Below, one piece after another: positions 2,810 through 42,132 of a stretch of 57,030 nucleotides of DNA (its first letter is position 1; each line of letters begins with the position of its first letter). Origin of the DNA: Oceanicaulis sp. (GTDB taxonomy: Bacteria > Pseudomonadota > Alphaproteobacteria > Caulobacterales > Maricaulaceae); assembly GCA_020832735.1 (NCBI GenBank), contig JAFIEB010000066.1, positions 1-57,030 on the forward strand, read 5' to 3'. The notes beneath the pieces were generated by a model. The model was not told the origin of the DNA, ran no database searches, and was given only the letters and a program-made list of their open reading frames with translations. Position numbers and translations under genes: made by a program.

Positions 2810-2899
2810 GGTGAGGTGGCCGAGTGGTCGAAGGCGCACGCCTGGAACGCGTGTAGGCGGGAAACCGTCTCGTGGGTTCGAATCCCACCCTCACCGCCA
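2810..2899 (+). tRNA. tRNA-Ser (anticodon GGA), island insertion site
   Basis: A class II tRNA: acceptor GGTGAGG (2810-2816) pairs with CCTCACC (2889-2895), discriminator G at 2896 and encoded CCA at 2897-2899. The anticodon arm is CACGC-CTGGAAC-GCGTG, giving GGA. A long variable arm (TAGGCGGGAAACCGTCTC) and a T arm with GTTCGAATC follow. The last 15 bases of the tRNA with its CCA lie within a 24-bp sequence repeated at 42006, and an integrase gene starts 108 bases downstream, so the gene is the attachment site of the island while staying intact. Confidence 0.96.
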
Positions 2900-3007: not shown

Positions 3008-4714
3008 ATGAGCCGGCGGCGCGTCCAGCACCTCGTCTCAAGAGGGCCGGGCTATCAGGTTCGCCTTCCCATACCCGTGGACCTTCAGCCCGTCCTGGAA
3101 CGCAAGGAACTGCGCTGGTCAGTCAGAACGCGTGAGCCCTCCGTGGCGGCAAGGCGTGTATTGAAGACGACTCTCGCGTTTTGGCGGCTGTGCGATAAGC
3201 TCCGTGACATGAAAGAACTGACCGTCTCAGAAGCGCAGCAAATCGCGCGCGCTTTCTATGCCAAGCAAACCGCTGCCTACGCGTCGCCACCCCCGATAGC
3301 CGACGACAAGATCGACTACGAGATCGGCTATCAGGAGCTGCTCGCTGACGAGTACATCACGGCGCGAGAGGACCAGATCAAGGCGCGTTCCTTTGGTTCG
3401 GAGGTGACAGTTCCAGCCAAGCAGCAGGTGGAAGCCGGTGGATTTCAGATGCCTGACCCGGGCAGCGAAGCTTTCCGGGCGCTTTGTGAGGGCATTGCAC
3501 GGGCGCAGATTGAAAATGCTCGGTTCGTCCTGTTTCGGCAGGACGCGCTGTTGGGAGGCTACCAGCCGCAGGATGAACTCTTTCGGGGCGCTTCCCCGCT
3601 GGAACCTTCTACCCAGTTGCTGCAATCAAGTGCAGCTCCCGCTGGGCTGACCCTTGCGGAGGCGGTTGGGCGGCATGTGGATTTCTATTCATCAGGCCCT
3701 TCAGCTTGGGAGCCCAAAACGAAGGAAGAGAAGGAGCGGACATTCAGTCTCGTTCTGCGCCTCTGGGGGCCAGAGCTGCCGGTGCGAGCCATCAGCACCG
3801 AGCACGTCCGAAAGCTCCGTGACTTCATTCAGGCCCTCAAGCCTCGCGTACGGGTCGATATTGACGCGCTTGACGATATGACGGCCTCCGCGCAGGGCGA
3901 ACGTCTGAATCCCAAAACGGCCTCGAAATACTTTGGGTACGTCAAAACGCTGCTCAACTGGCTGGACGCCGAAGGTTACATTGACGGCATACCGGGTTCA
4001 TCGGTGAAACTGGCGGTTCCGAAATCGGCGATGAAGCGAACTGTGCGCCCGTTTACGCCAGACGAATTGAATTCGATTTTTTCATCACCGCTGTATGCAG
4101 GCTTCAAGTCTCGCAGCCAGCGCCATCTGCCAGGGCAAAAGAAGGCCCAGGACGGCATCTACTGGATGTTCCTGCTGGCGCTCTATGCCGGAATGCGGGA
4201 GGGCGAGGTGCTGCAGCTTCGAAAGGCGGACCTGCATCTCGATCATTCTGTGCCTCACATTGATATTCAGGAGGAGCTCGATCTCAAAACGGCGTCTTCG
4301 GTCAGAAAAATTCCCATCCACCCTGACCTTATGGCTTTCGGGCTGGCATCATGGGTTGCTCGTCGGCCAAAGCAGGCGGAACACCGTCTGTTCTATGAGA
4401 TCCAGTTAGGTTCTGCTGGCCATCGCACCAGCGCCGCCTCGAAGCGCCTGAACAAGTATCTGGAGCGCATAGCGGTGAAGGCGGGGCGTGAACTCGTGTT
4501 TCATAGTTTCCGGCATTGCTTCAAGGACGCGATGCTCAATGCCGAAGTGCCGAACGACCTGATCAAGCAGTTGCTGGGGCATAAGGACCCGTCGGTGACG
4601 GGGCAATACGGGCAGGGTGCCAATCTCCAGACGCTCCGGAAGCAGGTGGAGAAGCTAGATTTCGAATTGTCGGAATACACGCGCGGCCTGCTGATTTCGA
4701 ATTGTCTGAAGTAG
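3008..4714 (+). CDS. Tyrosine recombinase/integrase of the genomic island
   Basis: A 568-residue integrase. The N-terminal ~60 residues (MSRRRVQHLVSRGPGYQVRL) resemble the short leader domain common in alphaproteobacterial island integrases; a SAM-like core-binding region lies around 215-330 and the catalytic domain around 345-550. Active-site residues are visible: Arg397 in AGMREGEVLQL, His499 and Arg502 in FHSFRHCF, His525 in LLGHKDPSVT and the nucleophile Tyr534 in GQYGQG. It starts at ATG 3008, 108 bases after the tRNA CCA, and is transcribed away from the attachment site. All catalytic residues are present, so it may be active. A truncated relative sits beyond the right end of the island. 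Confidence 0.93.
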   Translation: MSRRRVQHLVSRGPGYQVRLPIPVDLQPVLERKELRWSVRTREPSVAARRVLKTTLAFWRLCDKLRDMKELTVSEAQQIARAFYAKQTAAYASPPPIADDKIDYEIGYQELLADEYITAREDQIKARSFGSEVTVPAKQQVEAGGFQMPDPGSEAFRALCEGIARAQIENARFVLFRQDALLGGYQPQDELFRGASPLEPSTQLLQSSAAPAGLTLAEAVGRHVDFYSSGPSAWEPKTKEEKERTFSLVLRLWGPELPVRAISTEHVRKLRDFIQALKPRVRVDIDALDDMTASAQGERLNPKTASKYFGYVKTLLNWLDAEGYIDGIPGSSVKLAVPKSAMKRTVRPFTPDELNSIFSSPLYAGFKSRSQRHLPGQKKAQDGIYWMFLLALYAGMREGEVLQLRKADLHLDHSVPHIDIQEELDLKTASSVRKIPIHPDLMAFGLASWVARRPKQAEHRLFYEIQLGSAGHRTSAASKRLNKYLERIAVKAGRELVFHSFRHCFKDAMLNAEVPNDLIKQLLGHKDPSVTGQYGQGANLQTLRKQVEKLDFELSEYTRGLLISNCLK

Positions 4715-20103: not shown

Positions 20104-20255
20104 CCTGGTGCGAGGTTCGCCCTGCAATTAAGTGCAGCGCTCCACTTAAATATGGTCCAGCCCCATAATCAGGCCGTTTGTTGTTAGTTTTGCTCGTCTG
20201 TGAGCCGCCTCCGATTATGGTCAAAAAGCTAGCGGGGGAGCCAAGGGTCTCATGT

Positions 20256-20268
20256 GTGGACGGCCTCC
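20256..20268 (+). repeat. IS1111-type subterminal inverted repeat, transposase-3' side
   Basis: GTGGACGGCCTCC, the exact reverse complement of 21589-21601. Similarity stops within a few bases on either side, as expected for subterminal repeats. Confidence 0.75.
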
Positions 20269-20500
20269 GTTTGGCAAGCGCTACTTTGGTGATCTGACGG
20301 ATTGGCTGGTAGCGGTCATGTGTCCGGCCTTTGAAGCGCGGCCTTGATCGCCGCCGGCCCTGATGAAGTCCGCGGATCAGGTCCCATACAGGTCATCGTG
20401 CTTTGATGCACAGAGACCCATGATGGCGGGTTTATCTGATCCCGGTGGTCAGCCGTCTGTCATCACCTCCGATGCACTTCGCCAAGCTGGAAGGGAAAGA
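20269..20500 (-). ncRNA. Candidate bridge/seek RNA region of the IS1111-type element
   Basis: The 232 noncoding bases lie between the transposase stop and the distal inverted repeat. In IS1111-group elements the guide RNA that pairs with donor and target is encoded in this downstream position, whereas in the IS110 group it is upstream. No loop or guide could be assigned by eye; the call is from position and family knowledge. Confidence 0.4.
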
Positions 20501-21529
20501 CTACGCGGGCGAGGCTCCCGGTGCCCGGTATCGATCCCCAGTAGTCATGAGAGCCCAGACGATCCGGGCCATTTTGTTGGCCAACGCCACTGCCGCCAGT
20601 TTCTGGGGCTTTCGTTCGCAGAGTTGCCCGATCCACGGCATGGCGTGCGGGGCCTTCCGATGAACTCTGATCGCCGATAGCGCGCCGACGACCAGCAATC
20701 TGCGTATGTATGGATCGCCCTTCTTGGTGATCCGGCCGAGGCGCTCCTTGCCGTCGGAAGAGCTCTGTCGCGGAACGAGCCCCAACCAGGCCGAGAGCTC
20801 TCGGCCCGACCGGAAGAGCGAGGCGTCGCTTATGGTCGCCGCAAGGGCGCTCGCGGTGATCGGCCCCACGCCCGGAATCGTCGCCAAGCGCTGGCTTACT
20901 TCGTTCTCGCGGTGCCAGCGGGCGATCTCACGGTCGAGTTCGGCTACTTTGTCATCAAGCTCTTCGACCTGACGAACCAGCGGAAGCAGCGCGCATCGCA
21001 CCGCTTCGGGCACGAAGGCTTCTTCGTCCTCGTCCACCATGTCCATGAGGAGCCGCGAACCGACCGCTCCCTGCCTTGCGACGATGCCGAGCTCAGCCAG
21101 ATGCGCGCGCAGGGCGTTGATCGTCATCGTCCGCTGCCGGATCAGCAGCTCTCGAGCCCGGTGGGCCATCAACACACTCTGCTGCTCGACCGTCTTAACC
21201 GGAACGAACCGCATCGTCGGCCGCGTCACCGCCTCGCATATCGCCTCGGCGTCCGCCGCATCGTTCTTCTGCCGCTTTACATACGGCTTGACGTAGCTCG
21301 TCGGCATGAGCCGGACATCATGGCCAATCGCCATAAGCTCTCGCGCCCAGTGATGTCCTGTCGCGCAGGCCTCGATACCGATCAGGCAAGGGGCGAGCCC
21401 TTCGAAAAAATCGAGAACCTCAGAACGCCGTAAACGCCTGCGAAGAACGGCTTCCCCGCATGCGTCGACACCGTGAACCTGGAAGACGTGCTTGGCGATG
21501 TCCAAGCCGATCATGGTAACCTCTGACAT
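20501..21529 (-). CDS. IS110-family transposase (IS1111 group)
   Basis: A 342-residue DEDD transposase starting MSEVTMIGLDIAK (ATG 21529). The RuvC-like N-terminal domain shows GLDIAK, IGIEACA and KNDAADAEAI, supplying the acidic residues. The C-terminal Transposase_20 domain has IPGVGPITASALAA and the LVPRQSSSDGK stretch that holds the reactive Ser. The VKRQKNDAADAEAICEAVTRP segment is close to IS1111-type enzymes. All motifs are intact and there is no frameshift, so it may be active. Confidence 0.92.
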   Translation of the reverse strand: MSEVTMIGLDIAKHVFQVHGVDACGEAVLRRRLRRSEVLDFFEGLAPCLIGIEACATGHHWARELMAIGHDVRLMPTSYVKPYVKRQKNDAADAEAICEAVTRPTMRFVPVKTVEQQSVLMAHRARELLIRQRTMTINALRAHLAELGIVARQGAVGSRLLMDMVDEDEEAFVPEAVRCALLPLVRQVEELDDKVAELDREIARWHRENEVSQRLATIPGVGPITASALAATISDASLFRSGRELSAWLGLVPRQSSSDGKERLGRITKKGDPYIRRLLVVGALSAIRVHRKAPHAMPWIGQLCERKPQKLAAVALANKMARIVWALMTTGDRYRAPGASPA

Positions 21530-21588
21530 GGGCGGGCTCCTCGTGTGTGACCAAAACAGCCACACTCTGGCACACAGATGCCGCGGGA

Positions 21589-21601
21589 GGAGGCCGTCCA
21601 C
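21589..21601 (-). repeat. IS1111-type subterminal inverted repeat, transposase-5' side
   Basis: GGAGGCCGTCCAC, complementary to 20256-20268. It lies 60 bases upstream of the transposase start. Confidence 0.75.
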
Positions 21602-21862: not shown

Positions 21863-23947
21863 TCATGGTCCGAACTCAAATCGCACTTGATAGGGGCGCC
21901 CAGCGACTGGCTGTCCTTCGCGGTCCAGCCTCTGGCTCTGGTAATATGACGTCATTGCCAGCGCCCACTCAGCATACCGCGTATCTGAAGTGGAGGAGCT
22001 GGTGACTCGGCAATCTTCAAGCCTGGATTGAGCATTGAAACGGCATTCGATCATGACTTCATTGCGTCGGACCTGTCTGAGTAGCCGGGGCTGTTCGCGA
22101 TGGAAGTCTCTCGCTTCGGGGCCGCGCACCCAGACCGGATTCACCACTGGCTCTGGAGCGGCTACAGGCGCTTCCGTAGCGGCCTTGCGGGGCTGCGCTT
22201 CAAAATCCGCCGCTCGCATGTAGGCGACTTGTCCATCTGGCAATATCACTTCAACCCATTCGTGATGCTCCGTCAGCTGGCCCAGGACGTTGACTATTTG
22301 ACCGTCAGAAAATCGCTCGAAAGCCTGATCCGTGGCCGGTTCTGAAAAAACGGGAGCAATCACGGAACGCACGATCGCACGCCCGGCAATCGAGGTGTCG
22401 AGCTGGGGCGGGGGGTGTGATTGCACAAGCGCGGCAGGCAGATAGCCTTCCGTCCCGTTGCGCAGCCGCACGCGCCGCCAGTCGCTCTGCGTTTCAGGTG
22501 AGATTACTGTGAGCGGATCGCCGCGTTGCACGTGTCCGGCAACATTGGCCCCGGATGAAGCTGAAACACGCAGGGGTGATGCAGTCTGGGCAAAAGCGGC
22601 CGACTGTGTGAGGACCGGCGCGGGCGGCGGCGGGGCAGGCGTTGGCGCTCGCTGAGGCGGCGGCGTAAAGGTTGCCAGTGGCGTATACCCGATCCGGCTG
22701 TCATCCATCACGACTTCCACCCACTCGCGCCGCTGACTGAGCCGTCCATTGACACGAACCCGGTCGCCTTGGCTCAGAGACGCGATCACACTCGCGCCCG
22801 CCGGGTTTTCATAGACATCGGCGCGCGCCACAGTCACGGCGCGCTCAATAGACCGTGCGCCTGGCGTCAGAGCCGGAGGCCGCGCGGAAGCCAGGTTTCT
22901 GCTGCGCACATATCCCGTGAGATCGCCGCTTGTGCTCACCCTGGACCAGCCGCCCGGACCGGGCTCGCCAAGCCGTGTCACGCTTTCATTGCGTTCAAGG
23001 TCCCGCAAACGCCGGCTGCTTTCAGTCGCAGATGCATGCATCTGCGTGCGCGTGCGAACGAAAACGGTCGTCCTGGTAATTTGCGGCTGCGCGGGTGCAG
23101 CTGTTTCCGTCTGAACGGCTGTTTGAGCAGGGGCCTGTGGCCGCGCCGGAGCTGGTTCAGGACGAGATGGCGTATTGTCGCTTATCGCATGCAGCAACAC
23201 CAGAACGGCTACGGAAGCGCCGGCGACGCCGGCATACGCTTTCCAGTTGGGGTTTGACGGCGCGTTCGGCGTATGAGCGGGCGCAGAGCTGACGCGATAG
23301 CGCAGATTGTCTTTAGTGGCCGTTTCGTCTGCCGGTCGGGATGGTGCCGCCTTTTGTGTCTTTGCAGCGCCGCTGCCCGCAGCTGTCGATGCAGGTTTGG
23401 TTGCGCGGTGTTTTTGCACGGTCCGCGGCGCGCCCTTCTGTGCGTCTGTTACGCCCGCTATTGAGGCGGGAGAGCGCGGTTCGCCCTGACCTGAAGGCTT
23501 GTGGTCCTGCTTCTTCGGTCTGCTGGCTGGCGCGGGTGCAGGGACGTCAGCCTCGGTCCCGTCATCCTCGACCACGTCAGGCGCGCCATTGGCGCCGGCT
23601 TCATCTGGCATGGGGACGGTTGCCGTGAGAGCGTTGCCATCAACGATGTGCGCGGGCTGTTCTGATGGCTCCGGGTGTCCGGCGCGTGTGGTGTCAACGG
23701 CGCCGACAGGCGATTCAATATCGGCTTCAGGCTGCGCCAACGCGGTGCGGTCTTCATCCGTGAACAGATGGCGGGTCGCCGGATGGAGGGCGGCGGGTGC
23801 GCCTGCTTCCAGGGGGGATGTCCGCACCAAAGTCTGAAAATCCATGGCCCCGCGCATTTTCAGCCGGGCGATGCTAGACAATTGAACGTTGGTCCAGTGC
23901 CCTTCTCGCGTGAAATATGAGATCAGGGCTGGAGGCTGATCGGTCAC
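21863..23947 (-). CDS. Membrane protein with GYF-like, four SH3-like and TonB-C-like domains
   Basis: A 694-residue protein. GTG 23947 is used because it keeps an N-terminal domain of GYF_2-like pattern (residues ~5-65); a ribosome site is not obvious. A Pro/Ala-rich disordered stretch (~70-230) leads to one membrane span (~235-256, AYAGVAGASVAVLVLLHAI). Outside are four repeated SH3-like domains (about 295-360, 375-430, 455-510, 525-585), each with the WxxV...GYxxxxxL-type ending. The C-terminus (~600-694) resembles the TonB C-terminal domain (IECRFNAQSRLEDCRVTSSS). This layout suggests an inner-membrane anchor reaching through the periplasm to peptidoglycan or the outer membrane. It is divergent from the vWA-like lipoprotein. 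Confidence 0.7.
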   Translation of the reverse strand: MTDQPPALISYFTREGHWTNVQLSSIARLKMRGAMDFQTLVRTSPLEAGAPAALHPATRHLFTDEDRTALAQPEADIESPVGAVDTTRAGHPEPSEQPAHIVDGNALTATVPMPDEAGANGAPDVVEDDGTEADVPAPAPASRPKKQDHKPSGQGEPRSPASIAGVTDAQKGAPRTVQKHRATKPASTAAGSGAAKTQKAAPSRPADETATKDNLRYRVSSAPAHTPNAPSNPNWKAYAGVAGASVAVLVLLHAISDNTPSRPEPAPARPQAPAQTAVQTETAAPAQPQITRTTVFVRTRTQMHASATESSRRLRDLERNESVTRLGEPGPGGWSRVSTSGDLTGYVRSRNLASARPPALTPGARSIERAVTVARADVYENPAGASVIASLSQGDRVRVNGRLSQRREWVEVVMDDSRIGYTPLATFTPPPQRAPTPAPPPPAPVLTQSAAFAQTASPLRVSASSGANVAGHVQRGDPLTVISPETQSDWRRVRLRNGTEGYLPAALVQSHPPPQLDTSIAGRAIVRSVIAPVFSEPATDQAFERFSDGQIVNVLGQLTEHHEWVEVILPDGQVAYMRAADFEAQPRKAATEAPVAAPEPVVNPVWVRGPEARDFHREQPRLLRQVRRNEVMIECRFNAQSRLEDCRVTSSSTSDTRYAEWALAMTSYYQSQRLDREGQPVAGRPYQVRFEFGP

Positions 23948-23977
23948 GTTTAGTATCTCTGAGATCGCTCATGAGTA

Positions 23978-24011
23978 GCAGGTTGCTATCCTGCATACTC
24001 CGCCATAAGCT
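23978..24011 (+). promoter_or_regulatory. Candidate promoter and operator of the cytoskeletal-type operon
   Basis: TTGCTA at 23983-23988 and TAAGCT at 24006-24011 are separated by 17 bases, a fair sigma-70 match, 34 bases before ATG 24046. The inverted repeat GCAGG-N7-CCTGC (23978-23994) covers the -35 box and could bind a regulator. No regulator gene lies in the operon itself. Confidence 0.35.
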
Positions 24012-24045
24012 CGTTTACAGCAACCGCATGGTTGGGGGGAGGCAA

Positions 24046-25584
24046 ATGGTAAGGTGGGCGCTCACGCTCATTGTCATTTTGGGAATTGCCGGGGCGGGTG
24101 CTGGCTGCACGCCAGCCGGGTCTGATGCTGATCAGCTCAACGTCGCGGATGTGAGCGCCTCTGGTCCCTATTGCCTACCTGAAGGCGTGTTCGAACACGC
24201 CGCGCCCATGGGCCCGGCTGCTCCGTCTGCCGCGCCGGACCAGGTTTCAATCTATTTTGACGTGTCCCTGGCCAATATCGGCTATGGCGCGCCCGAGTTG
24301 CAGCATGGCTACGCTTCACTGCCATACCGCAATCTGGTTAGCGCGCTGTTCGCACTGGAGCGTGGCGGCATGGACGTCGCGCTCAATGGCTTTGCAGCCG
24401 CGCTTGAGCCTATCAGCCAGGATGCTCTGGTCGCCTTGGCGCGCGGTGAGGCGCGCTGCGCGCTCAGCCAAGCGTCAATGTGCCAGCGCACCAATCTGTC
24501 ACTGCCCTTTGAGGCCATCAACGACCGGGCCAACGGTCCGTCAATCATTGTTAGCGATATGATGTTCCGGGACCCGGACGTCTTCAACCCGGGTCCGCTC
24601 AGCCTGTCTCATACCATCAGGACGGTGATCGCCTCGGGTCAGTCCGTCGGGCTGATCGGCATCAAGGCGCCGTTCCGCGGTGCCCTGTATGACATGCCCG
24701 GCGAGCCCAGCGTCTGGGAGGATGCGCGCCGCGTCGACGGTCGGCGGGTTTTCTCTCCGGTACGCTACATGCCGCTGTTCATCATGATCATCGGCTCAAA
24801 CAGCGAGATCGAGTATCTGCGAAATCACTTTGCGCGCTCCGTCTTCGAGCAGCAGGCGGTTGAACATCATTTCAGTCTGTTTTCGGCGCGCGCACGTCGC
24901 CTTGAACCCATCATCGCCCAGGCGCGCGCTCCCGGCGCGGATCTCGACTTTCTCTCTCCCAGCTTCTTCATCCAGCCCAGTGGTGTGGCCCGCGATGTGC
25001 TTCAGTTGCGTCTGGACCGTCGCCGGCTGCGCGAGTTTCACGCCGAACAGGTTCGGCAAGCCGGAGAGCACGCCCCGGGCGAAGGCCCGCTTGAGATACG
25101 TTTTCCGGTGGACGCCCTGCTCTGGCCTGGCGCGCGGCTGGGTGGCGATTTCGAAGTCGAGGTCGAGGTGTTCCAGTCGCGTACGGCCCGCACGCGGCAA
25201 ACTTGCGATGATGGCTGGGATCGTGTGATGACCAGCTTGCCTGGCTCCGCTCTGGGTGAAGCGCGTTATGATGCGTCCGCAGGCGAGGGCTTGCTGCGGG
25301 TATATCTCGACCATGAGGCATGGCTCGAGGCCGATAGTCGCTTCATTCACCTTGCGCGCGTCTCCGTGCGCGCGCAGCCGGACCGAGCGAGTCCGGCTGC
25401 GCCAGATTGGATTGAGGCGTGGAGCTTCGAAGCCGACAGCATCCCGTCCCTCCGCGCTAGTCCGCCGGAATTTTTCCCCGTTTTGAACGTAGCCGCCCTG
25501 GCTCGCATGCTGGATCGGGAGGCGCGTGAATCAGCCATCGACGAAGCGCTGGCTGAAAGCGCCGTCTATATCGAAATCCGTTAG
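24046..25584 (+). CDS. Putative lipoprotein with a divergent von Willebrand A-like domain
   Basis: A 512-residue protein. ATG 24046 follows GGGGGGAGG closely and gives a clean signal, MVRWALTLIVILGIAGAGAG, ending at Cys21 (lipobox atypical, Gly at -3). An upstream ATG at 24028 is possible. VSIYFDVSLANIGYG (near residue 68-82) resembles the first strand and DxSxS motif of vWA domains, with the last Ser replaced. PSIIVSDMMF (near 165-175) resembles the later vWA Asp, and GQSVGLIGIKAPFRG follows as the next strand. The C-terminal half looks beta-rich. First gene of the rightward operon with the 4-TM protein, tubulin-like and Hsp70-like genes. The vWA assignment is by pattern only. Confidence 0.55.
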   Translation: MVRWALTLIVILGIAGAGAGCTPAGSDADQLNVADVSASGPYCLPEGVFEHAAPMGPAAPSAAPDQVSIYFDVSLANIGYGAPELQHGYASLPYRNLVSALFALERGGMDVALNGFAAALEPISQDALVALARGEARCALSQASMCQRTNLSLPFEAINDRANGPSIIVSDMMFRDPDVFNPGPLSLSHTIRTVIASGQSVGLIGIKAPFRGALYDMPGEPSVWEDARRVDGRRVFSPVRYMPLFIMIIGSNSEIEYLRNHFARSVFEQQAVEHHFSLFSARARRLEPIIAQARAPGADLDFLSPSFFIQPSGVARDVLQLRLDRRRLREFHAEQVRQAGEHAPGEGPLEIRFPVDALLWPGARLGGDFEVEVEVFQSRTARTRQTCDDGWDRVMTSLPGSALGEARYDASAGEGLLRVYLDHEAWLEADSRFIHLARVSVRAQPDRASPAAPDWIEAWSFEADSIPSLRASPPEFFPVLNVAALARMLDREARESAIDEALAESAVYIEIR

Positions 25585-25604
25585 CCCATTGCCCCGAGGA
25601 CCCA

Positions 25605-26147
25605 ATGCCCCGCTGGATCCGTTACCTTGTCGTACCTGGCGTCTTGTCTCTGTTGATCTTTCTGGTCGCCGTAACCGCAGCGCTGTTCGCTTGGGAGCGG
25701 TTCGTCGAGGATGTCAGCTTGCTGGTTCCTGACTGGCTCAGGGATCGGACGCCGGGCCAGATTCGCCAGGCTATGGCGACTGTGAACACTTGGGTCGCCA
25801 CCCTGATCTGGAGCGCAGCCTGTGCTGGGTTTCTGGCGAGTTTTTTATGGTTTTTCTTGGCCATGAGCGCTCAGCCAGGACGCCATCCCAAAGGCGCGGC
25901 TGGCTATCGCAGCCAATGGCTGGTGGCCATGGGCGGGGGCGTGCTGGTCCTGACTGTTTTCAACGTCCTGTCGGTCATTCTTGATCCGGCCAACAACATT
26001 ATGCGGATCGTCCGCCCGGCCATGATTTTCGGCCATGGGGCCGCAACTATAACGGGCATCTTGGTGATGTTCTGGCTGTGCACGGTGCTGACCACGCCGG
26101 ACAGAATGAAACCCGCAGTCCCGCTCAGCGGCTGGCGCCCCTGGTGA
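25605..26147 (+). CDS. Small multispan membrane protein of the tubulin/Hsp70-like operon
   Basis: A 180-residue protein of no recognised family with four likely transmembrane helices: about residues 8-30, 60-88, 105-127 and 140-163. An acidic/aromatic loop (WERFVEDVSLLVPDWL) between the first two probably faces the periplasm. The start is 20 bases after the lipoprotein stop and its stop is 15 bases before the tubulin-like gene, so the genes are surely co-transcribed. It may anchor the soluble NTPases to the inner membrane. Confidence 0.6.
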   Translation: MPRWIRYLVVPGVLSLLIFLVAVTAALFAWERFVEDVSLLVPDWLRDRTPGQIRQAMATVNTWVATLIWSAACAGFLASFLWFFLAMSAQPGRHPKGAAGYRSQWLVAMGGGVLVLTVFNVLSVILDPANNIMRIVRPAMIFGHGAATITGILVMFWLCTVLTTPDRMKPAVPLSGWRPW

Positions 26148-26162
26148 CAAGGCAGTGACATC

Positions 26163-27785
26163 ATGACTGAAGACACCACGCAAAACGTATTCATCGGGTT
26201 CGGCGGTACCGGCGCCAAGATTGCCGAGTGCGTCATGCATCTGTGCGCGGCCGGGCTTGGGCCACGCTCGATTACGCTGGGGATCGGCGACCAGGACGAC
26301 AGCGGTGGAAACACCCGGGCAGCGCTGGACACGCTTGAGAAGTATATCAAGGTTCAGCGGCGCCTGCGCAGCCAGGAGGGCAAGTTCGCGATCCCAGAAA
26401 GCGCCCGCAAGGAGCCCCTGTTCCGCACTCGTATCGATCCGGTCTATGGTGGCGACGGGCCCGATCTGCAATTGAACGAAAATATCTGGATTCCCCAACC
26501 CCGAGATGGGGGGGAGCAGACCTTGCGTAAGGCCGCAGACCTCGGCGCCGCAGATCCACATGTTGAGGACTTGCTTGAGCTCTTGTTTGCAGAGGGCGGC
26601 TCCGAACAGGAACTGGACCTTGCGAAAGGTTTCCAGGGGCGGCCGCATGTCGGTGCCGCCAGCATTCTTCTGAGCGTGGACGGGTCGGACTTCTGGCAGA
26701 ATCTCAAGGAAATTCTGGACAGCGCCCAGCAGCACAAAACCCGGATATTCCTCGCAGGATCGGCCTTTGGCGGTACGGGAGCCTCCAGCTTTCCCACCAT
26801 GGCGCGCCTGATACGCAAGACGCTGGGCGAGAAGCATTCCGGCGTGCAGGTATCCGGCGTGCTAATGTTGCCTTACTTCAAGTTTCCCCCGCCCAGGGAC
26901 GAAGGTGATCAGCATGCCGCCCGGGCTGACGAGTTTTTCGCCCAAACCAAGCACGCGCTTGACTACTATGCCGGTCAACTGGACCAGGGCGAGTTTTTCG
27001 ATGATCTCTATGTGATCGGCTGGGAGCCGCTGATTGATCTGGGTTATTTCTCCAAGGGCGACGCGACCCAGAAGAATCCGCCTCTGGTGCCAGAGCTGCT
27101 GGCGGCGTTGGCGGCCATGCGCGAGTTTCAGCGCCCGGTCAGCAAGCGCGGCTCGGGCGCGAAGCATGCAGGCCAAGTGCACCTGCTTGCGCGCAAGTCG
27201 AAGACGGCCCTGAGCTGGTCTGACCTGCCACCGGCGACTATCGAGACTGAACTGGCACCTCATGACACCGTGCGCGCCCGCCTCGCCCAGTGGCTGCGCT
27301 TTGCCTACGCTTGGCGTTACCGATACCGCCCTGCATTCAACAAGAACCAGCGCAAACTTCTGGGCGGGGAAACCTGGTTCAAGAACCATCTCGCCGGCGT
27401 TGATTTCAACGACAACCCGTTCGTTGACGAAATGTCAGATTTTGTGGATCGCGCCCTTCTCTATTTCGCCGGCATGTCCGCGTGGAGCAAGGAGGCCATG
27501 GAGTTCCGGTTGTGGAATGCTGACGCCTTTGCGCGATCTTCTGTCGAGGTCACGGCCAAGGGTCCCCGGCCTCCCTCGCTGCTCAGCGAGGACGAGGCAG
27601 CCAGGGAGAAATATGCCGGTTTTGATCGTATTTTAGTGGCAGAAGCGATTGAGGATGCGCCGCGCGATATCTCCGAGTGCTGGAACTGGCTTGGCGCCCG
27701 GAAATCGGATCCAAAAACAATCGGCGCGTTCACCGCCGCCCTGTATCAGTCGGTCGCTTTGGCGATGGGTGAGGAGCGCAAATAA
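26163..27785 (+). CDS. Tubulin/FtsZ-superfamily-like GTPase
   Basis: A 540-residue soluble protein. FIGFGGTGAKIAE at residues 10-22 matches the first Gly-rich loop of tubulin-like proteins, and FLAGSAFGGTGASSFP at about 197-212 matches the tubulin signature (GGTG[AS]S) that binds the phosphates of GTP. It is much longer than FtsZ and resembles the Tubulin_2-type uncharacterised bacterial family. The long insert between the loops (~30-190) is acidic. A polymer-forming GTPase is the family expectation, not shown here. Its stop codon directly adjoins the start of the Hsp70-like gene, arguing for tightly matched expression. Confidence 0.75.
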   Translation: MTEDTTQNVFIGFGGTGAKIAECVMHLCAAGLGPRSITLGIGDQDDSGGNTRAALDTLEKYIKVQRRLRSQEGKFAIPESARKEPLFRTRIDPVYGGDGPDLQLNENIWIPQPRDGGEQTLRKAADLGAADPHVEDLLELLFAEGGSEQELDLAKGFQGRPHVGAASILLSVDGSDFWQNLKEILDSAQQHKTRIFLAGSAFGGTGASSFPTMARLIRKTLGEKHSGVQVSGVLMLPYFKFPPPRDEGDQHAARADEFFAQTKHALDYYAGQLDQGEFFDDLYVIGWEPLIDLGYFSKGDATQKNPPLVPELLAALAAMREFQRPVSKRGSGAKHAGQVHLLARKSKTALSWSDLPPATIETELAPHDTVRARLAQWLRFAYAWRYRYRPAFNKNQRKLLGGETWFKNHLAGVDFNDNPFVDEMSDFVDRALLYFAGMSAWSKEAMEFRLWNADAFARSSVEVTAKGPRPPSLLSEDEAAREKYAGFDRILVAEAIEDAPRDISECWNWLGARKSDPKTIGAFTAALYQSVALAMGEERK

Positions 27786-30700
27786 ATGTCCAATGCTTCC
27801 ATGACGGACTATGAATGGAACCTGCCCTCCCACGGGTCGGGTGAAAACGAGAGTATTCCCGGAGCGACCAATGATGGGCGCTGGCAGACGGGGTTATGTG
27901 ATCTTGAGAAACTGGGTGATGCCCTGAAGGTCCACGCCGACCGCATGGCCGATGTCGCACAGGTCAAGTCGGTGCCCGATATATGGGGCCATACCATTGC
28001 GTTCCGAAACGCACTCTTCAATCCCGACCCGGAAGATCAACTGCAAAAGCAGGCCGTGTCGCAATGGCGCGGTCTGCTCACCCTGATCGGGCTTCGGCAG
28101 ATGCAGAGCAGCGTCTACACGCTTGATATGATCGAGATCCGAACCGATGAAGCGCCCGAGAATGGATTGACGAGGCTGGCCGGGGATTTCCGCCCGGCGC
28201 TCTCCATCGACAAGAATTTCAATACCAAGGTGATCCACCTGCTCTTTATTGAGTGCGAGGCGCGCCGAAGCCTGGTTGGCGTGCTGACCCCAGATACGCT
28301 TGTGGCACCAGGACGCAATGTTGGGCTGGTCTCTATCGCCAATACGCGCTGGTTCCAGAAGGGTCCCGCCTGCCCATTGGCTAATGGTGCAGGCTTATCG
28401 CCAGAACAGGAACTTGCTCTGGCCGCGTTCGTCGAGGGATTGGCCAACGCCGTAAAGCAGGCCCCGGTTGCTGCAGCCCGCTCACGAGGCGATTCTGTCC
28501 GGTCCTCCCTCCGCCGGCTTCTCGATGAGTTCGCCGCGGAGCTGCGCAACAGCTCAGGAGAGGATGCACGCGCCCAGCCGGAGCTGCGCGCCGTGCAGAC
28601 CATCGGGCCCAGCGCAGGCATTCTGGCCGCACTGGACAAAGTTTACGCTCCGGGAGAGATTGACGAAGACGCTACGGATCTCATGGTCAACCTGCGCTCC
28701 GATTTGCCAGAGGGCGAAGATCGGAGCGTGTTCAAGGGCTTTGTGCTGGCGGATCCGAAATTTGCCGAACGCCACGGCCGGCGCGCGGATCGGGTAACGG
28801 TCTGGCGTGAACGGCGTCTGTCTGAGGTCGCAGACCCGCGCACCTTTGAGTCGGTGCGGGAAGATGCGCTGAAATCGCGGTATCTGCTGATCAGGCCCGA
28901 AGACATATTCACCGATGTGTTCGTGCCCTTCTCCAGTAATACCATCGCAGCCCACGCGGATGCCTTGAAGGGCGGGCTCCTGCCGCTCAAGCCAATCATT
29001 CTGATGATGATGAGCCCGGAGGAAATCGCCGAGAACTTCAAGCTGGTCGAGCACAGAAAAGGGCGCTGGGTGTTCGAGCTGACCGTTTCGGTCATAACCA
29101 ATGACGCCCGCTCCAAAGTCGTGCGCCACACATTGGTCAAGGAGTATGTGACCTCAGACGCCCGCAGCGAGGCGCGCTGGGACAAACCGGGATTGGTGGT
29201 GGCCAATGCAGGTATGGGGTTCAGACTGGATGCGCCTGACACGCTCGCCGCGTGGCCGAACTTCAAGCACCCGGAATGGCGCTGGAATTTTCTATATTTC
29301 AAGACCCCTCACCACGCCGCCATACCGCTGACCGGCATTTCGGGTGACATACTCAGGCGCGATCTTAGCCAGGCGACGACCATGCCCGGCCGCCTTGCCC
29401 GATTGGAGCAATGGTCCAGACTGAACCAGAACGGGGAATGCGAGCGGTGGCCGGGTACGGAGACGCGCGAGCCTGAAGACGCGCCCCCCTGGTTTGAACG
29501 CATCGCGATAGACCAGCACTCGCCTAGAGGCGGTCAACACCAGACCGAAGTGCAGCGCTGCGACGTGCCGTTCGAGGCTGTGACTTTCCGTTGCGAGGCC
29601 GAGAGCGATCTGGTCGGTCCTGATGACGCACAAACCTATTTTGCGGGCTTAGGCCTGCTCCCGGCTCTGTCCTCGCCACCGCAAATGCCGGAAGCGAAGG
29701 CAACGCTTGCCATTGATTTTGGAACCACCAACACCACGGTCTATTACCAGCTCAATGGCATGAATGAATGCCGCTTTCAGCCAAGATTGCGCCTTTTCAG
29801 CACGATTGAACATGGCGCCGGCTCTAAACCATACGCGGGCTTCATGCCGTCTAGCATTATCGCGCAGCCCTTTGGAACGATACTGGCTGATCGAACGCTC
29901 AATCGGCATGGAGAAACTTATCCGGACTGGCGCAATATGGGCACGCCTGAACCGGCGCTTTGGCGCTCGCACATCGCGTTTGGAGAGGATTTCCAAGAAT
30001 TGCTGTCCGGACTTCTACCTCAAGAAAGTGATCGCAGCGCTGGCAAATCGCCGCCCGCCGCCGCCAGCGACCGGCAATTACGCTTCGGGTTCAAGTGGAG
30101 CGCGGAAGAGGGTGATCGTGATGCAATCAACCGATTCCTGATGCATTGCGTCGTTCTCTCATTGGCGGAATTATGCGCGCAAGGGGTCACGCCAAGCCAT
30201 GTGGATTGGCGTTTCTCCTTCCCGACAGCCATGAAAACCGATGATGCGCGCGATTATTTCGACCGGGCGTCACAGATCGTGACAGTCGCCAGCGGCGAGC
30301 ATGCCAAAACCAAACTGGCTACTACCACCGAAGCGGAAGCCGCCGCTGTATACTTTCGGGAAGCCTTCAAGGCCGATATTCCCCGCTCCTATCTCGTGCT
30401 GGATATCGGAGGCGGGACGACAGACATCAGCGTCTGGACCTACAAGGGCCAGCTCTGGTCCGGCTCCTTCCTGTTGGCCGGCGCCGACCTGATGTTAGAC
30501 TTCGTAATCAAGAATAAAGACTTCTTGGATGCGCTTGCTGTTGAAACCGATGACATGCTCGGCAAGCACAAAGCTAGAGAGCTTTTGAAAGCTCTGCCCC
30601 AGCAGCAGCGCTCGGATACGCCAGCAGATAAAACGATTGCATTTTTGGTTAATACTGAAGCCTTCCGCAAACGTTTCAACGAGCGCCGGTCTAGCATTTC

Positions 30701-31529
30701 AGGACGCAGGGAAGTTCGCAAACTCCATGCTGGCGCCCGTCTGATGCTAGGCGGGTTGCTCTATTATTCCGGCATGCAAGTGCGCGGGCTATTGGAGCAC
30801 CCTGAATTTTCCAAGAATGTTGATCCTGATGCGTTTGATGCCATCCGGATCGCCTTTGCGGGACGTGGTTCGACCCTGTTCAACCAGATGCATGGGGACG
30901 GGGCTAATTCGAAGTTGACCGGGGCCTTCGCCCTGTTCAATGCCGGCCGCAATCAGAGCAATGACCCAGACGACGATCTCAAGGCGTCGCTGTCGCCCGA
31001 GGACATAAAATTCAGCCCGGTGCCCAAGCACGAAGTGGCGCTGGGCATGCTTCACATGATGGAGGACGAGCTAGTCAATCTCGGTCAGGCGCTTGATTCC
31101 AAGCGGGGCAGACGGGCGGACTTCATGGTCAGCGGCGAGGTCATCACCGGTCCGCCCGACGCCGCGTCGGACAATCAGAGCATTGTCGTGAACGCCATGG
31201 ACAGCGTGTTTGACCTGACGACGCGGCTGAAGGACAAACATTTGGAAGTCCAGTCGCTTCAGCAGTTCGACCGGTTCCTGACGGCTCTGCGCGTGAATAC
31301 CGGACTGCAGCTGCATTTGAACCAGAATGTTCGCAAAACCCTCCAGGAAGCGCTGCGCCTGGAAGCGGAAGCCTGGACGGGGGCGACCTCGCTCAAGGGC
31401 TCGGACAGCTTGCGCCGGCCCGAGCCGCCATTCATCCGCCTGCTGAGGGAAACGCTTTCCCGGCTCTATTCAGAACCGGGGCAAGGTGTAAGCGAGAATT
31501 CGGTCATTGGCTTCGACATGGAGCAATAG
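27786..31529 (+). CDS. Large protein with C-terminal Hsp70/actin-like ATPase domain
   Basis: A 1247-residue protein. The first ~630 residues match nothing I recognise. From residue ~638 an Hsp70/actin fold is visible: phosphate-1 loop LAIDFGTTNTTVYYQ near 641, phosphate-2 loop YLVLDIGGGTTDISVW near 868, and adenosine motif AFAGRGSTLFNQ near 1020. There is no Hsp70 substrate-binding domain; the tail is helical. Size and layout recall the SrfB-type large Hsp70-like proteins, but the N-terminal part cannot be matched by eye. It starts at the base after the tubulin-like stop. With its neighbour it would put two cytoskeletal-type NTPases in one operon. Confidence 0.8.
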   Translation: MSNASMTDYEWNLPSHGSGENESIPGATNDGRWQTGLCDLEKLGDALKVHADRMADVAQVKSVPDIWGHTIAFRNALFNPDPEDQLQKQAVSQWRGLLTLIGLRQMQSSVYTLDMIEIRTDEAPENGLTRLAGDFRPALSIDKNFNTKVIHLLFIECEARRSLVGVLTPDTLVAPGRNVGLVSIANTRWFQKGPACPLANGAGLSPEQELALAAFVEGLANAVKQAPVAAARSRGDSVRSSLRRLLDEFAAELRNSSGEDARAQPELRAVQTIGPSAGILAALDKVYAPGEIDEDATDLMVNLRSDLPEGEDRSVFKGFVLADPKFAERHGRRADRVTVWRERRLSEVADPRTFESVREDALKSRYLLIRPEDIFTDVFVPFSSNTIAAHADALKGGLLPLKPIILMMMSPEEIAENFKLVEHRKGRWVFELTVSVITNDARSKVVRHTLVKEYVTSDARSEARWDKPGLVVANAGMGFRLDAPDTLAAWPNFKHPEWRWNFLYFKTPHHAAIPLTGISGDILRRDLSQATTMPGRLARLEQWSRLNQNGECERWPGTETREPEDAPPWFERIAIDQHSPRGGQHQTEVQRCDVPFEAVTFRCEAESDLVGPDDAQTYFAGLGLLPALSSPPQMPEAKATLAIDFGTTNTTVYYQLNGMNECRFQPRLRLFSTIEHGAGSKPYAGFMPSSIIAQPFGTILADRTLNRHGETYPDWRNMGTPEPALWRSHIAFGEDFQELLSGLLPQESDRSAGKSPPAAASDRQLRFGFKWSAEEGDRDAINRFLMHCVVLSLAELCAQGVTPSHVDWRFSFPTAMKTDDARDYFDRASQIVTVASGEHAKTKLATTTEAEAAAVYFREAFKADIPRSYLVLDIGGGTTDISVWTYKGQLWSGSFLLAGADLMLDFVIKNKDFLDALAVETDDMLGKHKARELLKALPQQQRSDTPADKTIAFLVNTEAFRKRFNERRSSISGRREVRKLHAGARLMLGGLLYYSGMQVRGLLEHPEFSKNVDPDAFDAIRIAFAGRGSTLFNQMHGDGANSKLTGAFALFNAGRNQSNDPDDDLKASLSPEDIKFSPVPKHEVALGMLHMMEDELVNLGQALDSKRGRRADFMVSGEVITGPPDAASDNQSIVVNAMDSVFDLTTRLKDKHLEVQSLQQFDRFLTALRVNTGLQLHLNQNVRKTLQEALRLEAEAWTGATSLKGSDSLRRPEPPFIRLLRETLSRLYSEPGQGVSENSVIGFDMEQ

Positions 31530-31543
31530 CAGCGGAGACAGTC

Positions 31544-32422
31544 ATGATGATCGCGGTCCATATGGAGCCTGACGCGCGAATCGCGCTGGAAGCCCTTACC
31601 GGGTCTGGCGCTCTGCCGGAATGGGCCGTGTGGGCCGGGGTGGCGGCCCTCGTGGCGGTGGCGGTTCTCGCAGTCGTCATAAGCCTTGCAGCGTTAAACA
31701 AAACGCAGTCATTTGCCGCCAGGTTGAACCGCCTCAATCTGGATCAAACGGTATCGGACAAGTCTGTGTCTTTGCGCCCGCTTCAGCAGGATCAGTCGGC
31801 ACCGCCCGCCGAACCAACGGACCGTGAGGATTACCGGCGGCTGTACGATGCCTATATGCAGTTGACCGAGCGGGTAAGGCTCCTTGAGGAAGAACGCAAC
31901 CGGCTCCGCGATGAGCCCGATCACGCTGAACTGGGGTATTCTGCGAATGACGCAGAGGCGGGCAGGGCATCAGTACATCCTGCGCATTCGGCAGGGGCGG
32001 CGTCAGATGCGATATGTGCGAATGATGTCCGTGAGCGCACCCGGCTAGCCTCTGCTGATCTGACGGCCTGTTTCGAGCGGCCATATCCCCTTCAATCTGC
32101 AGCCAGACGGATCGGGGCGAAGTTTTTCAGATTGAGTTCCAGCGGGGAGCTGGTCGGAGAAGATGAGGGGGGCCCACATTCGGACCGCTGGTTCATGGCT
32201 GTTCCAGATTCCAAGAGCAGCGCATACACTTTGCATTTCGGGCCGCGCGTAATGCGTGAGCGCACAAAATTGCGTGTATCCTCACAATTTATCGCAAGTC
32301 TGGAGGCCTATTTCGATATCCAGCACGGCTACCATAATCTCGAACAGATTGATTCGGCTGTCGTCGAGCTAGTTCAGGGAGGCGCGCCGATCATTCTTGA
32401 CCGGGGCTCCGTGCAAGCGTGA
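31544..32422 (+). CDS. Membrane-anchored coiled-coil protein of the same operon
   Basis: A 292-residue protein of no known family. ATG 31544 has GGAG seven bases upstream; ATG 31547 is the alternative. One transmembrane helix at about residues 27-50 (WAVWAGVAALVAVAVLAVVI) is followed by a likely coiled coil (~95-130, YMQLTERVRLLEEERNRLRD) and a globular C-terminal domain (~165-285). It starts 14 bases after the Hsp70-like gene and ends the operon. It could be the membrane receptor of the NTPase complex; that is inference. Confidence 0.6.
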   Translation: MMIAVHMEPDARIALEALTGSGALPEWAVWAGVAALVAVAVLAVVISLAALNKTQSFAARLNRLNLDQTVSDKSVSLRPLQQDQSAPPAEPTDREDYRRLYDAYMQLTERVRLLEEERNRLRDEPDHAELGYSANDAEAGRASVHPAHSAGAASDAICANDVRERTRLASADLTACFERPYPLQSAARRIGAKFFRLSSSGELVGEDEGGPHSDRWFMAVPDSKSSAYTLHFGPRVMRERTKLRVSSQFIASLEAYFDIQHGYHNLEQIDSAVVELVQGGAPIILDRGSVQA

Positions 32423-32782: not shown

Positions 32783-33583
32783 GGTCGTGATTCAAGCTCC
32801 TTGAAGGGAGTTTGGTCATGGCCCGATTTGATTTGAGTGATGCGGAGTGGTCGATCATCGCGCCGCTCCTGCCGAACAAGCCGCGCGGCGTGCCGCGCAC
32901 GGACGACCGGCGTGTGCTGAACGGGATTTTCTATATTTTGCGGACGGGATCGCCGTGGCGCGATCTGCCGGAGCGCTACGGCCCGTACACGACGGTCTAC
33001 AACCGCTTCAACCGGTGGGCCAAGGCGGGGGTATGGGTGAATGTTTTCAATGCGCTGGCCGACCAGTCTCCAGAGTCGATGACGTTTATCGACAGCTCCA
33101 TCATCCGCGCCCATCAGCACGCCGCCGGCGGAAAAAAGGGGGTCCGGATCACGCCATCGGTCTCTCTCGCGGGGGACTGAGCACCAAGATCCACGCCATC
33201 GTGGACGATCAGGGCCTGCCCATCCGCCTGGCCCTGTCTCAAGGCCAGGCCGGCGACAAGAGCGCCGGCGCCGAGCTGATATCCACCCTGCGCCGGGCCC
33301 GCCATGTGGTGGCCGACCGCGGCTACGACGCCCGCGCCCTGGTCGAGCAGATCGAAGCCATGGGCGCCACGGCTCACATCCCGACCCAGAGAGACCGAAA
33401 GGTCCAGAGGTCCGTCGCGCCGCACATCTATCGCCAGCGCAATCTCGTCGAGCGCTACTTCTGCAAACTCAAGCACTTCAGACGATGCGCCACACGCTTC
33501 GAAAAGCTGGCCAGAAACTTCCTGGCCGCCATCGCACTCGCATCAGCAAGGCTCTGGGTCAGAGCTTATGAGTCCACGACCTA
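32783..33583 (+). mobile_element. IS5-family element (IS427-type)
   Basis: An ~800-bp element with imperfect terminal inverted repeats: GGGTCGTGATTCAAGCTC at 32783-32800, and at the right end (33562-33582) a sequence that reads AGGTCGTGGACTCATAAGCTC on the other strand. A two-frame transposase fills the interior and its stop codon lies at the right terminal repeat. The target duplication could not be defined. It was inserted just inside the first island right end. Confidence 0.7.
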
Positions 33584-33584
33584 G
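32818..33584 (+). CDS. IS5-family transposase made by -1 frameshift
   Basis: Two overlapping frames: the first from ATG 32818 to 33180 (MARFDLSDAEWSIIAPLLPN; DDE first Asp in TFIDSSIIRAHQ) and the second ending at 33584 (second Asp in VVADRGYDA, Glu in RNLVERYFCKLKHFRR). The heptamer A-AAA-AAG at 33132-33138 is in the correct phase for a -1 slip, which joins AAGGKK to GGPDHAI and gives one ~256-residue enzyme. All three catalytic residues are then present. This arrangement is usual for this IS group, so it is not a broken gene. Confidence 0.85.
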
Positions 33585-41892: not shown

Positions 41893-42014
41893 TCGGCCAA
41901 AAACGTTCCAACAACGTACCCATAATACGTTCCAATTCCCATTGATTTCACCGCTCCCTGTGCAACAATTTCAAAAGGTTACAAAGGGCTAGAGCATGAG
42001 CACCAAATCCCACC
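41893..42014 (+). repeat. Island right-end sequence, copy 2 (outer)
   Basis: Nearly identical to 33590-33710 and directly adjoining the complete 24-bp attachment core at 42006. It contains ACGTTCCAAC (41903) and ACGTTCCAAT (41927) as direct repeats, the likely right-arm integrase sites. Confidence 0.85.
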
Positions 42015-42029
42015 CTCACCGCCACCATC
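42006..42029 (+). repeat. Attachment site (attR) of the island
   Basis: Exact 24-bp copy of 2881-2904, holding the last 15 bases of tRNA-Ser with CCA (42006-42024) and five bases beyond. No tRNA body precedes it. It marks the outer boundary of the ~39-kb insert. Confidence 0.85.
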
Positions 42030-42087
42030 CCGAAAACCCATTACTTTTCATATGGTTACGATTCCGGCTCCCTGGTGGGCGGCGGAA

Positions 42088-42110: not shown

Positions 42111-42132
42111 CCCGGCTGGCGGGGCTGGCCTG

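What the first reader, a model, noticed from the sequence alone, without database searches (positions are those of the whole stretch)
21863..32422. Six-gene system pairing a tubulin-like GTPase with an Hsp70/actin-like ATPase and envelope proteins
Five tightly packed rightward genes (24046-32422) encode a vWA-like lipoprotein, a 4-TM protein, a tubulin-superfamily GTPase (FGGTGAK and SAFGGTGASS loops), a 1247-residue protein with a C-terminal Hsp70-like ATPase (IDFGTTNTT, LDIGGGTTD), and a TM/coiled-coil protein. A divergent gene encodes a membrane protein with SH3-like repeats and a TonB-C-like end. The tubulin-like stop adjoins the Hsp70-like start, implying fixed stoichiometry. Known work describes bacterial FtsZ-like families linked to vWA proteins and membrane partners, suggested to remodel membranes, and SrfB-type Hsp70-like proteins, but I know of no characterised system with this exact set. 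On a defence-rich island it could be an envelope-spanning conflict or protection system.
Basis: partly seen in the sequence, partly recalled or inferred. Interest (0 to 1): 0.9.

Follow-up and report, generated by a model that had tools for sequence, protein, structure and literature searches.

The report
Tubulin–Hsp70 envelope gene cassette
A mobile gene cluster found in at least nine bacterial phyla pairs a tubulin-like protein with an Hsp70-like protein and membrane/cell-wall proteins, which suggests an undescribed envelope machine that may help bacteria resist viruses, though nobody has tested it.

Summary
The window carries five intact co-oriented genes (vWA-like, 4-TM, tubulin-like GTPase, Hsp70/actin-like ATPase, TM/coiled-coil) and a divergent TM/SH3 gene. 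AlphaFold plus Foldseek support a tubulin-type GTPase core and an Hsp70-type ATPase domain. The cassette is a conserved unit: among 83 loci found through the tubulin-like protein, the Hsp70-like gene is immediately downstream in 81, is 4.2 kb away in one, and the remaining contig ends inside the tubulin gene. vWA and 4-TM partners sit beside most, and the trees mirror each other (r=0.96). In a branch spanning Poribacteria, Acidobacteriota, Nitrospirota, KSB1 and Aminicenantes, the operon also encodes a Zorya-like ZorA/ZorB ion-motor pair. The window copy lies on an integrase/tRNA-Ser island with restriction genes, absent from 60 sampled relatives. The tubulin belongs to the known Tubulin_2/FtsZl1 family. 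The closest described systems, FtsZl1–vWA operons and DO-GTPase/tubulin/HSP70 conflict systems, lack this combination; SrfB membership is rejected. Best explanation: an inner-membrane-anchored, GTP/ATP-driven assembly that senses envelope state, most likely a conflict (antiphage) system. The architecture is well supported; the defence role is inference (about 40%), and neighbours elsewhere are not clearly defence-rich. New variant of a known kind.

The parts
21863..23947 (-). Divergent membrane protein: N-terminal cytoplasmic segment, Pro/Ala linker, one TM (about residue 237), SH3b repeats, TonB-C-like C-terminus (by eye); probable envelope/peptidoglycan sensor arm
   Evidence: SH3_3 E=1.8e-22; one TM. 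Near-relative cassette L019 has a divergent GYF-like/TM/SH3 gene in the same place; accessory family in alphaproteobacterial cassettes has SH3_3 in 7, DUF805 in 8, GYF_2 in 2 and TonB_C in 1 of 23. Direct homology of the window copy to that family not significant
24046..25584 (+). vWA-like protein with N-terminal signal/TM and possible (non-canonical) lipobox; alternative start 23917
   Evidence: Family motif D-x-[ST]-x-S ... [TS]DL conserved in most of 56 relatives, partly degenerate here; found beside the tubulin in 72 of 83 loci
25605..26147 (+). Small 4-TM inner-membrane protein
   Evidence: Hydropathy segments at 3, 63, 104, 140; orthologue by HMM in 66 of 83 loci and a multi-TM ORF in the same position in 11 more
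26163..27785 (+). Tubulin/FtsZ-superfamily GTPase (Tubulin_2 branch) with divergent helical C-terminal half; T1-like IGFGGTGAK and T4-like FGGTGA loops
   Evidence: PF13809 above cut-off; AF2 pLDDT 86.5; Foldseek to tubulin/FtsZ/TubZ; invariant loops, D43, D45, N305
27786..31529 (+). Large protein: about 600-aa N-terminal region of unknown function, Hsp70/actin-type ATPase domain (about 640-1040), helical C-terminus
   Evidence: MreB/DnaK profile matches, AF2 and Foldseek on a homologue; D644, K770, E849, D873 invariant in 51 homologues
31544..32422 (+). TM plus coiled-coil protein; positional counterpart of gene 5 of other cassettes
   Evidence: One TM. Conserved C-terminal domain of gene 5 found in 71 loci but not significantly detected in the window copy
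20501..21601 (-). IS110-like transposase on the left flank (identity from sequence reading)
   Evidence: ORF; not profile-tested
32812..33584 (+). IS5-like transposase in two overlapping frames on the right flank (identity from sequence reading)
   Evidence: ORFs; not profile-tested
2881..2899 (+). Left attachment-type repeat (3' end of tRNA-Ser)
   Evidence: 19-bp exact direct repeat with 42006-42024; tRNA-Ser 2810-2899
3008..4714 (+). Tyrosine integrase of the island
   Evidence: Phage_integrase E=1.8e-18
42006..42024 (+). Right attachment-type repeat
   Evidence: Exact 19-bp copy of the tRNA-Ser 3' end

Best explanation
This is one copy of a conserved, horizontally mobile operon that builds an envelope-associated, dual-NTPase assembly. 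Shown: a tubulin-superfamily GTPase and an Hsp70/actin-type ATPase are encoded side by side as an obligate pair within this family, next to a vWA-type envelope protein, a 4-TM membrane protein and TM proteins with periplasmic SH3-type domains or a shared C-terminal domain; in one branch a ZorA/ZorB-like ion-driven stator is added. Inferred: periplasmic or cell-wall-facing proteins (vWA, SH3b, ZorB-like) sense or grip the envelope. The signal passes through the 4-TM/TM proteins to the cytoplasmic pair. The Hsp70-like ATPase loads, remodels or resets the tubulin-like GTPase, whose NTP-dependent assembly at the inner membrane carries out the response. The likeliest role is conflict (antiphage) defence triggered by envelope perturbation, analogous in logic to Zorya and to the DO-GTPase GAP1-N2 systems. 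My confidence is about 0.9 that it is one system, about 0.75 that it acts at the envelope, and about 0.4 that its role is defence.
For: Strict pairing: Hsp70-like directly downstream of tubulin-like in 81 of 83 loci, median gap 18 bp. Reciprocal searches of 72,556 plasmids hit the same five records. In Alphaproteobacteria samples both families occur in the same two genomes. Mirror trees: TUB-HSP r=0.958, TUB-vWA r=0.870, 0 of 1000 permutations as high. Folds. NTPase motifs intact. ZorB HMM hits to E=2.7e-19, FWPSF[SA]D[LM] with the MotB-type Asp in all 12 ZorB-like copies found, 3-TM ZorA-like partners. Mobility: integrase, 19-bp att-type repeat at tRNA-Ser, and same-genus relatives that keep the left flank and tRNA but lack the insert. 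Type I RM, DrmC-like and Mrr genes on the same island.
Against: No nuclease, toxin or other obvious effector in the window cassette. Not in PADLOC. PADLOC hits among 104 neighbours of other cassettes are few (15 families, each in one member). Many copies are on cyanobacterial chromosomes or contigs and the tree follows phyla fairly well, more like a long-kept accessory machine than a fast-moving defence locus. The tubulin survey used seeds that all had the Hsp70-like partner, so obligate pairing is shown for this clade, not for all Tubulin_2 proteins. The N-terminal 600 aa of the ATPase, gene 5 and the periplasmic parts have no tested function. No interaction between the two NTPases was modelled or measured.
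Confidence: 0.45

Rival explanations
1. A membrane-remodelling, trafficking or surface-assembly machine with no defence role, as proposed by Makarova and Koonin for FtsZl1-vWA operons: the tubulin-like GTPase shapes or positions inner-membrane structures, the Hsp70-like ATPase assembles its parts, and variable gene-5/SH3 proteins are cargo or surface components.
For: Tubulin_2/FtsZl1 membership; mostly membrane or envelope partners; phylum-like tree and chromosomal copies in cyanobacteria; multiple downstream paralogues carrying the gene-5 C-terminal domain in cyanobacteria; few defence neighbours; published prediction PMC2875224.
Against: Very patchy (2 of 372 Alphaproteobacteria genomes; none of 60 relatives); carried on an integrase island with restriction genes and on plasmids; ZorAB-like addition in one branch.
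Confidence: 0.35
2. A cytomotive positioning or partition system (TubZ/ParM-like) that stabilises the mobile element carrying it.
For: Tubulin-like plus actin-clan ATPase, five plasmid copies, island location.
Against: No small DNA-binding adaptor gene in the conserved set; vWA, 4-TM and TM partners are conserved instead; most copies are not on known plasmids; the Gloeothece plasmid already carries ParA/ParB.
Confidence: 0.05
3. A protein-quality or envelope-stress chaperone relay: the Hsp70-like ATPase is a true chaperone and the tubulin-like protein a scaffold, relieving envelope protein stress.
For: Foldseek best matches are DnaK/BiP; catalytic-type residues conserved; envelope partners.
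Against: No substrate-binding domain recognised by sequence, no DnaJ or GrpE gene in the conserved set; by sequence profile the phosphate-2 motif is closest to MreB.
Confidence: 0.12

Closest known systems
FtsZl1 (Pfam PF13809 Tubulin_2) – vWA operons (Makarova and Koonin 2010, PMC2875224)
   Same: Tubulin-superfamily GTPase domain; vWA partner with signal/TM; membrane partners; OmpA-type domains (here only in the ZorB-like branch)
   Different: No P-loop GTPase partner found; typical FtsZl1 members have a long coiled-coil middle part, not found here; an Hsp70/actin-type ATPase is obligate here, and that paper's main text does not mention one (its supplements, which may list cyanobacterial copies under unnamed families, were not readable)
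DO-GTPase GAP1-N2 conflict systems with tubulin or HSP70 (Kaur et al. 2020, PMC7159879)
   Same: Tubulin-like, HSP70-like, vWA, SH3 and GYF domains appear as partners; membrane-proximal; predicted conflict role by NTP-driven assembly
   Different: No DO-GTPase; in that work the tubulin and HSP70 themes do not overlap and are restricted to, or mainly in, Firmicutes and Actinobacteria; no FNIII, GrpE or DnaJ partner recognised here
Zorya antiphage system (ZorA/ZorB; PMC11890865)
   Same: A branch of this cassette carries a ZorA-like (3 TM, long tail) and ZorB-like (TM Asp, OmpA domain) pair in the operon
   Different: Absent from the window copy; no ZorC, ZorD or ZorE recognised in the operons examined; the tubulin/Hsp70 pair is foreign to Zorya
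SrfB (Pfam PF07520)
   Same: About 1000-aa protein with a phosphate-2 DIGGGTTD motif
   Different: Only 44 columns align; the three SrfB loci examined lack tubulin, vWA and 4-TM partners

Membership tests
Tubulin_2 / FtsZl1 | Tubulin/FtsZ GTPase core with T1 and T4 loops, above the curated score | tested here: met
   38.1 bits against 27, also in two other cassette genomes; loops invariant; fold
Tubulin_2 / FtsZl1 | Extended coiled-coil after the GTPase domain, then helical C-terminal domain (majority of members) | tested here: not met
   Proteins are about 500-540 aa; AF2 shows a helical C-terminal half with no long coiled coil; described for the majority of FtsZl1 members, not all, so it does not exclude membership
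Tubulin_2 / FtsZl1 | vWA protein in the operon | tested here: met
   72 of 83 loci within 3.5 kb; motif evidence
Hsp70/actin ATPase clan | Phosphate-1, phosphate-2 and adenosine motifs; actin-like fold | tested here: met
Hsp70 chaperone proper | C-terminal substrate-binding domain and DnaJ/GrpE partners | tested here: inconclusive
   None recognised by Pfam in the protein or seen in the cassette, but the other regions are of unknown fold
SrfB | Full-length PF07520 match | tested here: not met
   11.6 bits against 27.1; 44-column local alignment only
DO-GTPase (GAP1-N2) conflict system | DO-GTPase component | tested here: not met
   PF19993 absent from three cassette-bearing genomes; a GTPase signature in only 1 locus of the survey
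Zorya | ZorA and ZorB | tested here: not met
   No such pair among the window cassette's genes; present in 14 related cassettes
Zorya | ZorC/ZorD or ZorE effector | not tested
   Not searched systematically in the cassettes; none among the proteins scanned
vWA domain | MIDAS DxSxS...T...D | tested here: inconclusive
   Conserved in most relatives, degenerate in the window copy; no Pfam hit for the window copy and weak hits in single relatives
Antiphage defence system | Demonstrated phage protection | not testable with these tools
   Needs an experiment; PADLOC has no model for the core genes

The most novel reading that the evidence does not exclude
A previously undescribed, widespread class of envelope-spanning antiphage system in which a bacterial tubulin and an Hsp70/actin-type ATPase form one machine gated by cell-wall-facing sensors and, in a branch, powered or triggered by a Zorya-type ion motor: a bacterial two-cytoskeleton immune device.
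Probability: 0.3. Interest if true: 0.93.

Novelty: new variant of a known kind. Interest (0 to 1): 0.74.

Why it matters
As far as the searched library shows, FtsZl1/Tubulin_2 proteins have had no assigned function since their description in 2010. An obligate Hsp70-type partner, a fixed set of envelope proteins, and a branch that recruits ZorAB give a concrete, testable hint of a mechanism and a clear experimental unit (five or six genes). If it is defence, it joins tubulin- and Hsp70-type NTPases in one immune machine; if not, it is a widespread undescribed envelope machine, present even in marine Pelagibacteraceae single-cell genomes, where accessory genes are few.

Tried and rejected
SrfB identity: rejected. 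DO-GTPase system: rejected on the missing GTPase. TubZ/ParM-type partition: disfavoured by gene content. Phage origin: no tubulin match in 50,697 phage records, only actin-motif-sized matches in IMG/VR, no viral fold match at E<=0.001. Defence-neighbour enrichment: PADLOC on 104 neighbours gave few hits and there was no control set, so it does not support defence. Homology of the window's gene 5 and of its SH3 protein's N-terminus to the families in other cassettes: not significant, so those two assignments rest on position and architecture only. A single-sequence genome scan found nothing; the four-sequence alignment was needed. PDB sequence searches gave nothing useful for the tubulin or vWA profiles. 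Two neighbouring 374-aa window ORFs are not paralogues.
Full report
WHAT IS THERE. The window holds five intact, tightly packed rightward genes at 24046-32422 and a divergent gene at 21863-23947. With the start at 24046, 98 bp separate the divergent starts, room for divergent promoters. Gene 1 is a vWA-like exported protein, gene 2 a 180-aa protein with four hydrophobic segments, gene 3 a tubulin-like GTPase, gene 4 a 1247-aa protein with an Hsp70/actin-type ATPase domain, and gene 5 a one-TM coiled-coil protein. The divergent gene has one TM followed by SH3b repeats.

FOLDS. Gene 3 passes Pfam's curated cut-off for Tubulin_2 (38.1 against 27 bits). With an alignment of 50 relatives, AlphaFold2 gives pLDDT 86.5 and pTM 0.92. 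Foldseek against the PDB returns almost only tubulin, FtsZ, TubZ and CetZ (best E=4e-4, probability 1.0), but with whole-chain TM of 0.2-0.3, because the second half is a divergent helical region. The tubulin identity therefore holds for the GTPase core only. The glycine loops (G14, G15, G17; G203, G204, G206), D43, D45 and N305 are invariant across 50 sequences; a T6-like guanine-binding role for N305 is my inference. For gene 4, the profile of 51 relatives matches MreB and DnaK. A homologue (the window protein exceeds the length limit) is modelled at pLDDT 88 and matches DnaK, BiP and MreB at E about 1e-8 with TMt up to about 0.5. D644, K770, E849 and D873 are invariant; E849 and D873 have the same 24-residue spacing as E175 and D199 of Hsc70 (numbering from my own knowledge), so the ATPase site looks intact. 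About 600 N-terminal residues are of unknown function.

THE vWA ASSIGNMENT. Pfam does not recognise the window protein and gives only weak hits for single relatives. The family shows the MIDAS-type D-x-[ST]-x-S and a downstream [TS]DL motif in most members; the window copy is degenerate (DVSLA, SDM), so metal binding may be weak here. A lipobox was found in many relatives but the window's is non-canonical.

IS IT A SYSTEM? Four tubulin sequences (window, one alphaproteobacterial genome, two cyanobacterial plasmids) were used to scan 84,980 species genomes; 80 loci were kept. Of 83 loci examined, the Hsp70-like gene lies directly downstream in 81 (median gap 18 bp), 4.2 kb downstream in one, and in the last the contig ends inside the tubulin gene. 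vWA is within 3.5 kb in 72 (51 same strand, 21 divergent, the usual cyanobacterial arrangement); 4-TM is found by HMM in 66 and by position in 11 more (table). Hosts include Alpha- and Gammaproteobacteria, Cyanobacteria, Poribacteria, Acidobacteriota, Nitrospirota, KSB1, Ignavibacteriota, Aminicenantes, Bacillota and Thermodesulfobacteriota. The reverse test: searching plasmids with the Hsp70-like protein or with the tubulin hits exactly the same five records. In Alphaproteobacteria samples, long Hsp70-like matches and tubulin matches fall in the same two genomes. Distance matrices of the three trees correlate at 0.87-0.96, with none of 1000 permutations as high; shared species history contributes to this. 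Caveat: all four seeds had the partner, so obligate pairing is shown for this clade, not for every Tubulin_2 protein, and the 83 loci are not independent.

ADDED PARTS. Gene 5 has a conserved C-terminal domain in 71 loci, often in several paralogues in cyanobacteria; the window's gene 5 has the same position and build but no significant match. Alphaproteobacterial cassettes carry an accessory family with a GYF-like N-terminal domain, a TM and variable ends: of 23 members, SH3_3 in 7, DUF805 in 8, GYF_2 in 2, TonB_C in 1. The window's SH3 gene matches this architecture, and in a near relative (L019, Brevundimonas) a GYF-like/TM/SH3 gene sits divergently at the same spot, but sequence homology is not significant. 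In 14 cassettes of one branch (Poribacteria, Acidobacteriota, Nitrospirota, KSB1, Aminicenantes) the operon continues into a ZorA/ZorB-like pair: ZorB HMMs to E=2.7e-19, OmpA domain, FWPSF[SA]D[LM] with the MotB-type aspartate in all 12 ZorB-like copies found (the other two contigs end first), and 3-TM ZorA-like proteins of about 600-800 aa where complete. ZorA matches lie partly in coiled coil and Pfam MotA is below cut-off, so ZorB is the firmer half.

WHERE IT SITS. A 19-bp exact repeat of the tRNA-Ser 3' end occurs at 2881-2899 and 42006-42024, with a tyrosine integrase just inside. Inside are a Type I restriction system, a DrmC-like PLD protein, an Mrr endonuclease, the cassette flanked by two transposase genes, and an efflux protein and multicopper oxidase pair. 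Four same-genus genomes keep the left flank and the tRNA but not the insert; one (G008) joins the tRNA to the region matching 34.7-41.6 kb, so the 2.9-34.7 kb stretch is the insertion relative to it. None of 60 sampled relatives has the tubulin.

HOW IT PROBABLY WORKS. Shown: two predicted-active NTPases of the tubulin and Hsp70/actin clans are inherited together with membrane and periplasm-facing proteins. Inferred: envelope-facing parts sense or grip the cell wall; the signal reaches the cytoplasmic pair; ATP cycling by the Hsp70-like protein controls NTP-dependent assembly of the tubulin-like protein at the membrane; assembly carries out the response. The ZorAB-like branch and the defence-rich island make conflict the likeliest purpose, by analogy with Zorya, where the ion motor, its tail and peptidoglycan binding are needed (PMC11890865), and with the predicted NTP-driven conflict systems of Kaur et al. 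(PMC7159879). Against this, PADLOC found few defence families among 104 neighbours of other cassettes, and the tree is largely phylum-like, which suits the membrane-remodelling idea of Makarova and Koonin (PMC2875224).

KNOWN OR NEW. The tubulin belongs to the known Tubulin_2/FtsZl1 family. I found no paper in the library describing the obligate Hsp70-type partner, the fixed five-gene set or its ZorAB extension. The 2010 paper's supplements could not be read and may list some cyanobacterial members without domain names; most subscription papers and preprints are not in the library. It is not SrfB, not a DO-GTPase system, and the window copy is not Zorya. I class it as a new variant of a known kind.

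Noticed in passing
window 2881-2899 and 42006-42024: 19-bp exact repeat of the tRNA-Ser 3' end bounds a 39-kb integrase island; same-genus relatives carry the left flank and tRNA without the cassette.
   Followed up: yes
window 42052-42223 vs 2927-3098: 172 bp just beyond the right repeat is 90% identical to the start of the integrase region, so a second, decayed island may adjoin, and the ORF called from 42052 probably has a false N-terminus.
   Followed up: partly
window 9498-18023 and 18262-19107: Type I restriction system (R, S, M) with a DrmC-like PLD protein and a 314-aa protein without a Pfam match inside the operon, followed by an Mrr endonuclease.
   Followed up: partly
L055:15511-18814 and equivalents in 13 other loci: ZorA/ZorB-like motor genes appended to the tubulin/Hsp70 operon in one branch; no ZorC, ZorD or ZorE recognised beside them in the loci read.
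   Followed up: yes
L070:16173-17237 and 19936-21144: KSB1 cassette has extra genes: a TIR/deoxyribosyltransferase-like protein with an Lcl_C domain (PADLOC TIR effector E=3e-13) and a second vWA protein; possible effectors.
   Followed up: no
L029:1-15104: Two vWA-tubulin-Hsp70 cassettes in tandem in a Rhodospirillales MAG.
   Followed up: no
L059:17397, L071:18308, L087:17446: Cyanobacterial cassettes carry a second, shorter (about 735 aa) Hsp70-like paralogue downstream among the gene-5 paralogues.
   Followed up: no
L022, L024-L027, L030, L035: The cassette occurs in Pelagibacteraceae single-cell genomes, surprising for streamlined genomes.
   Followed up: no
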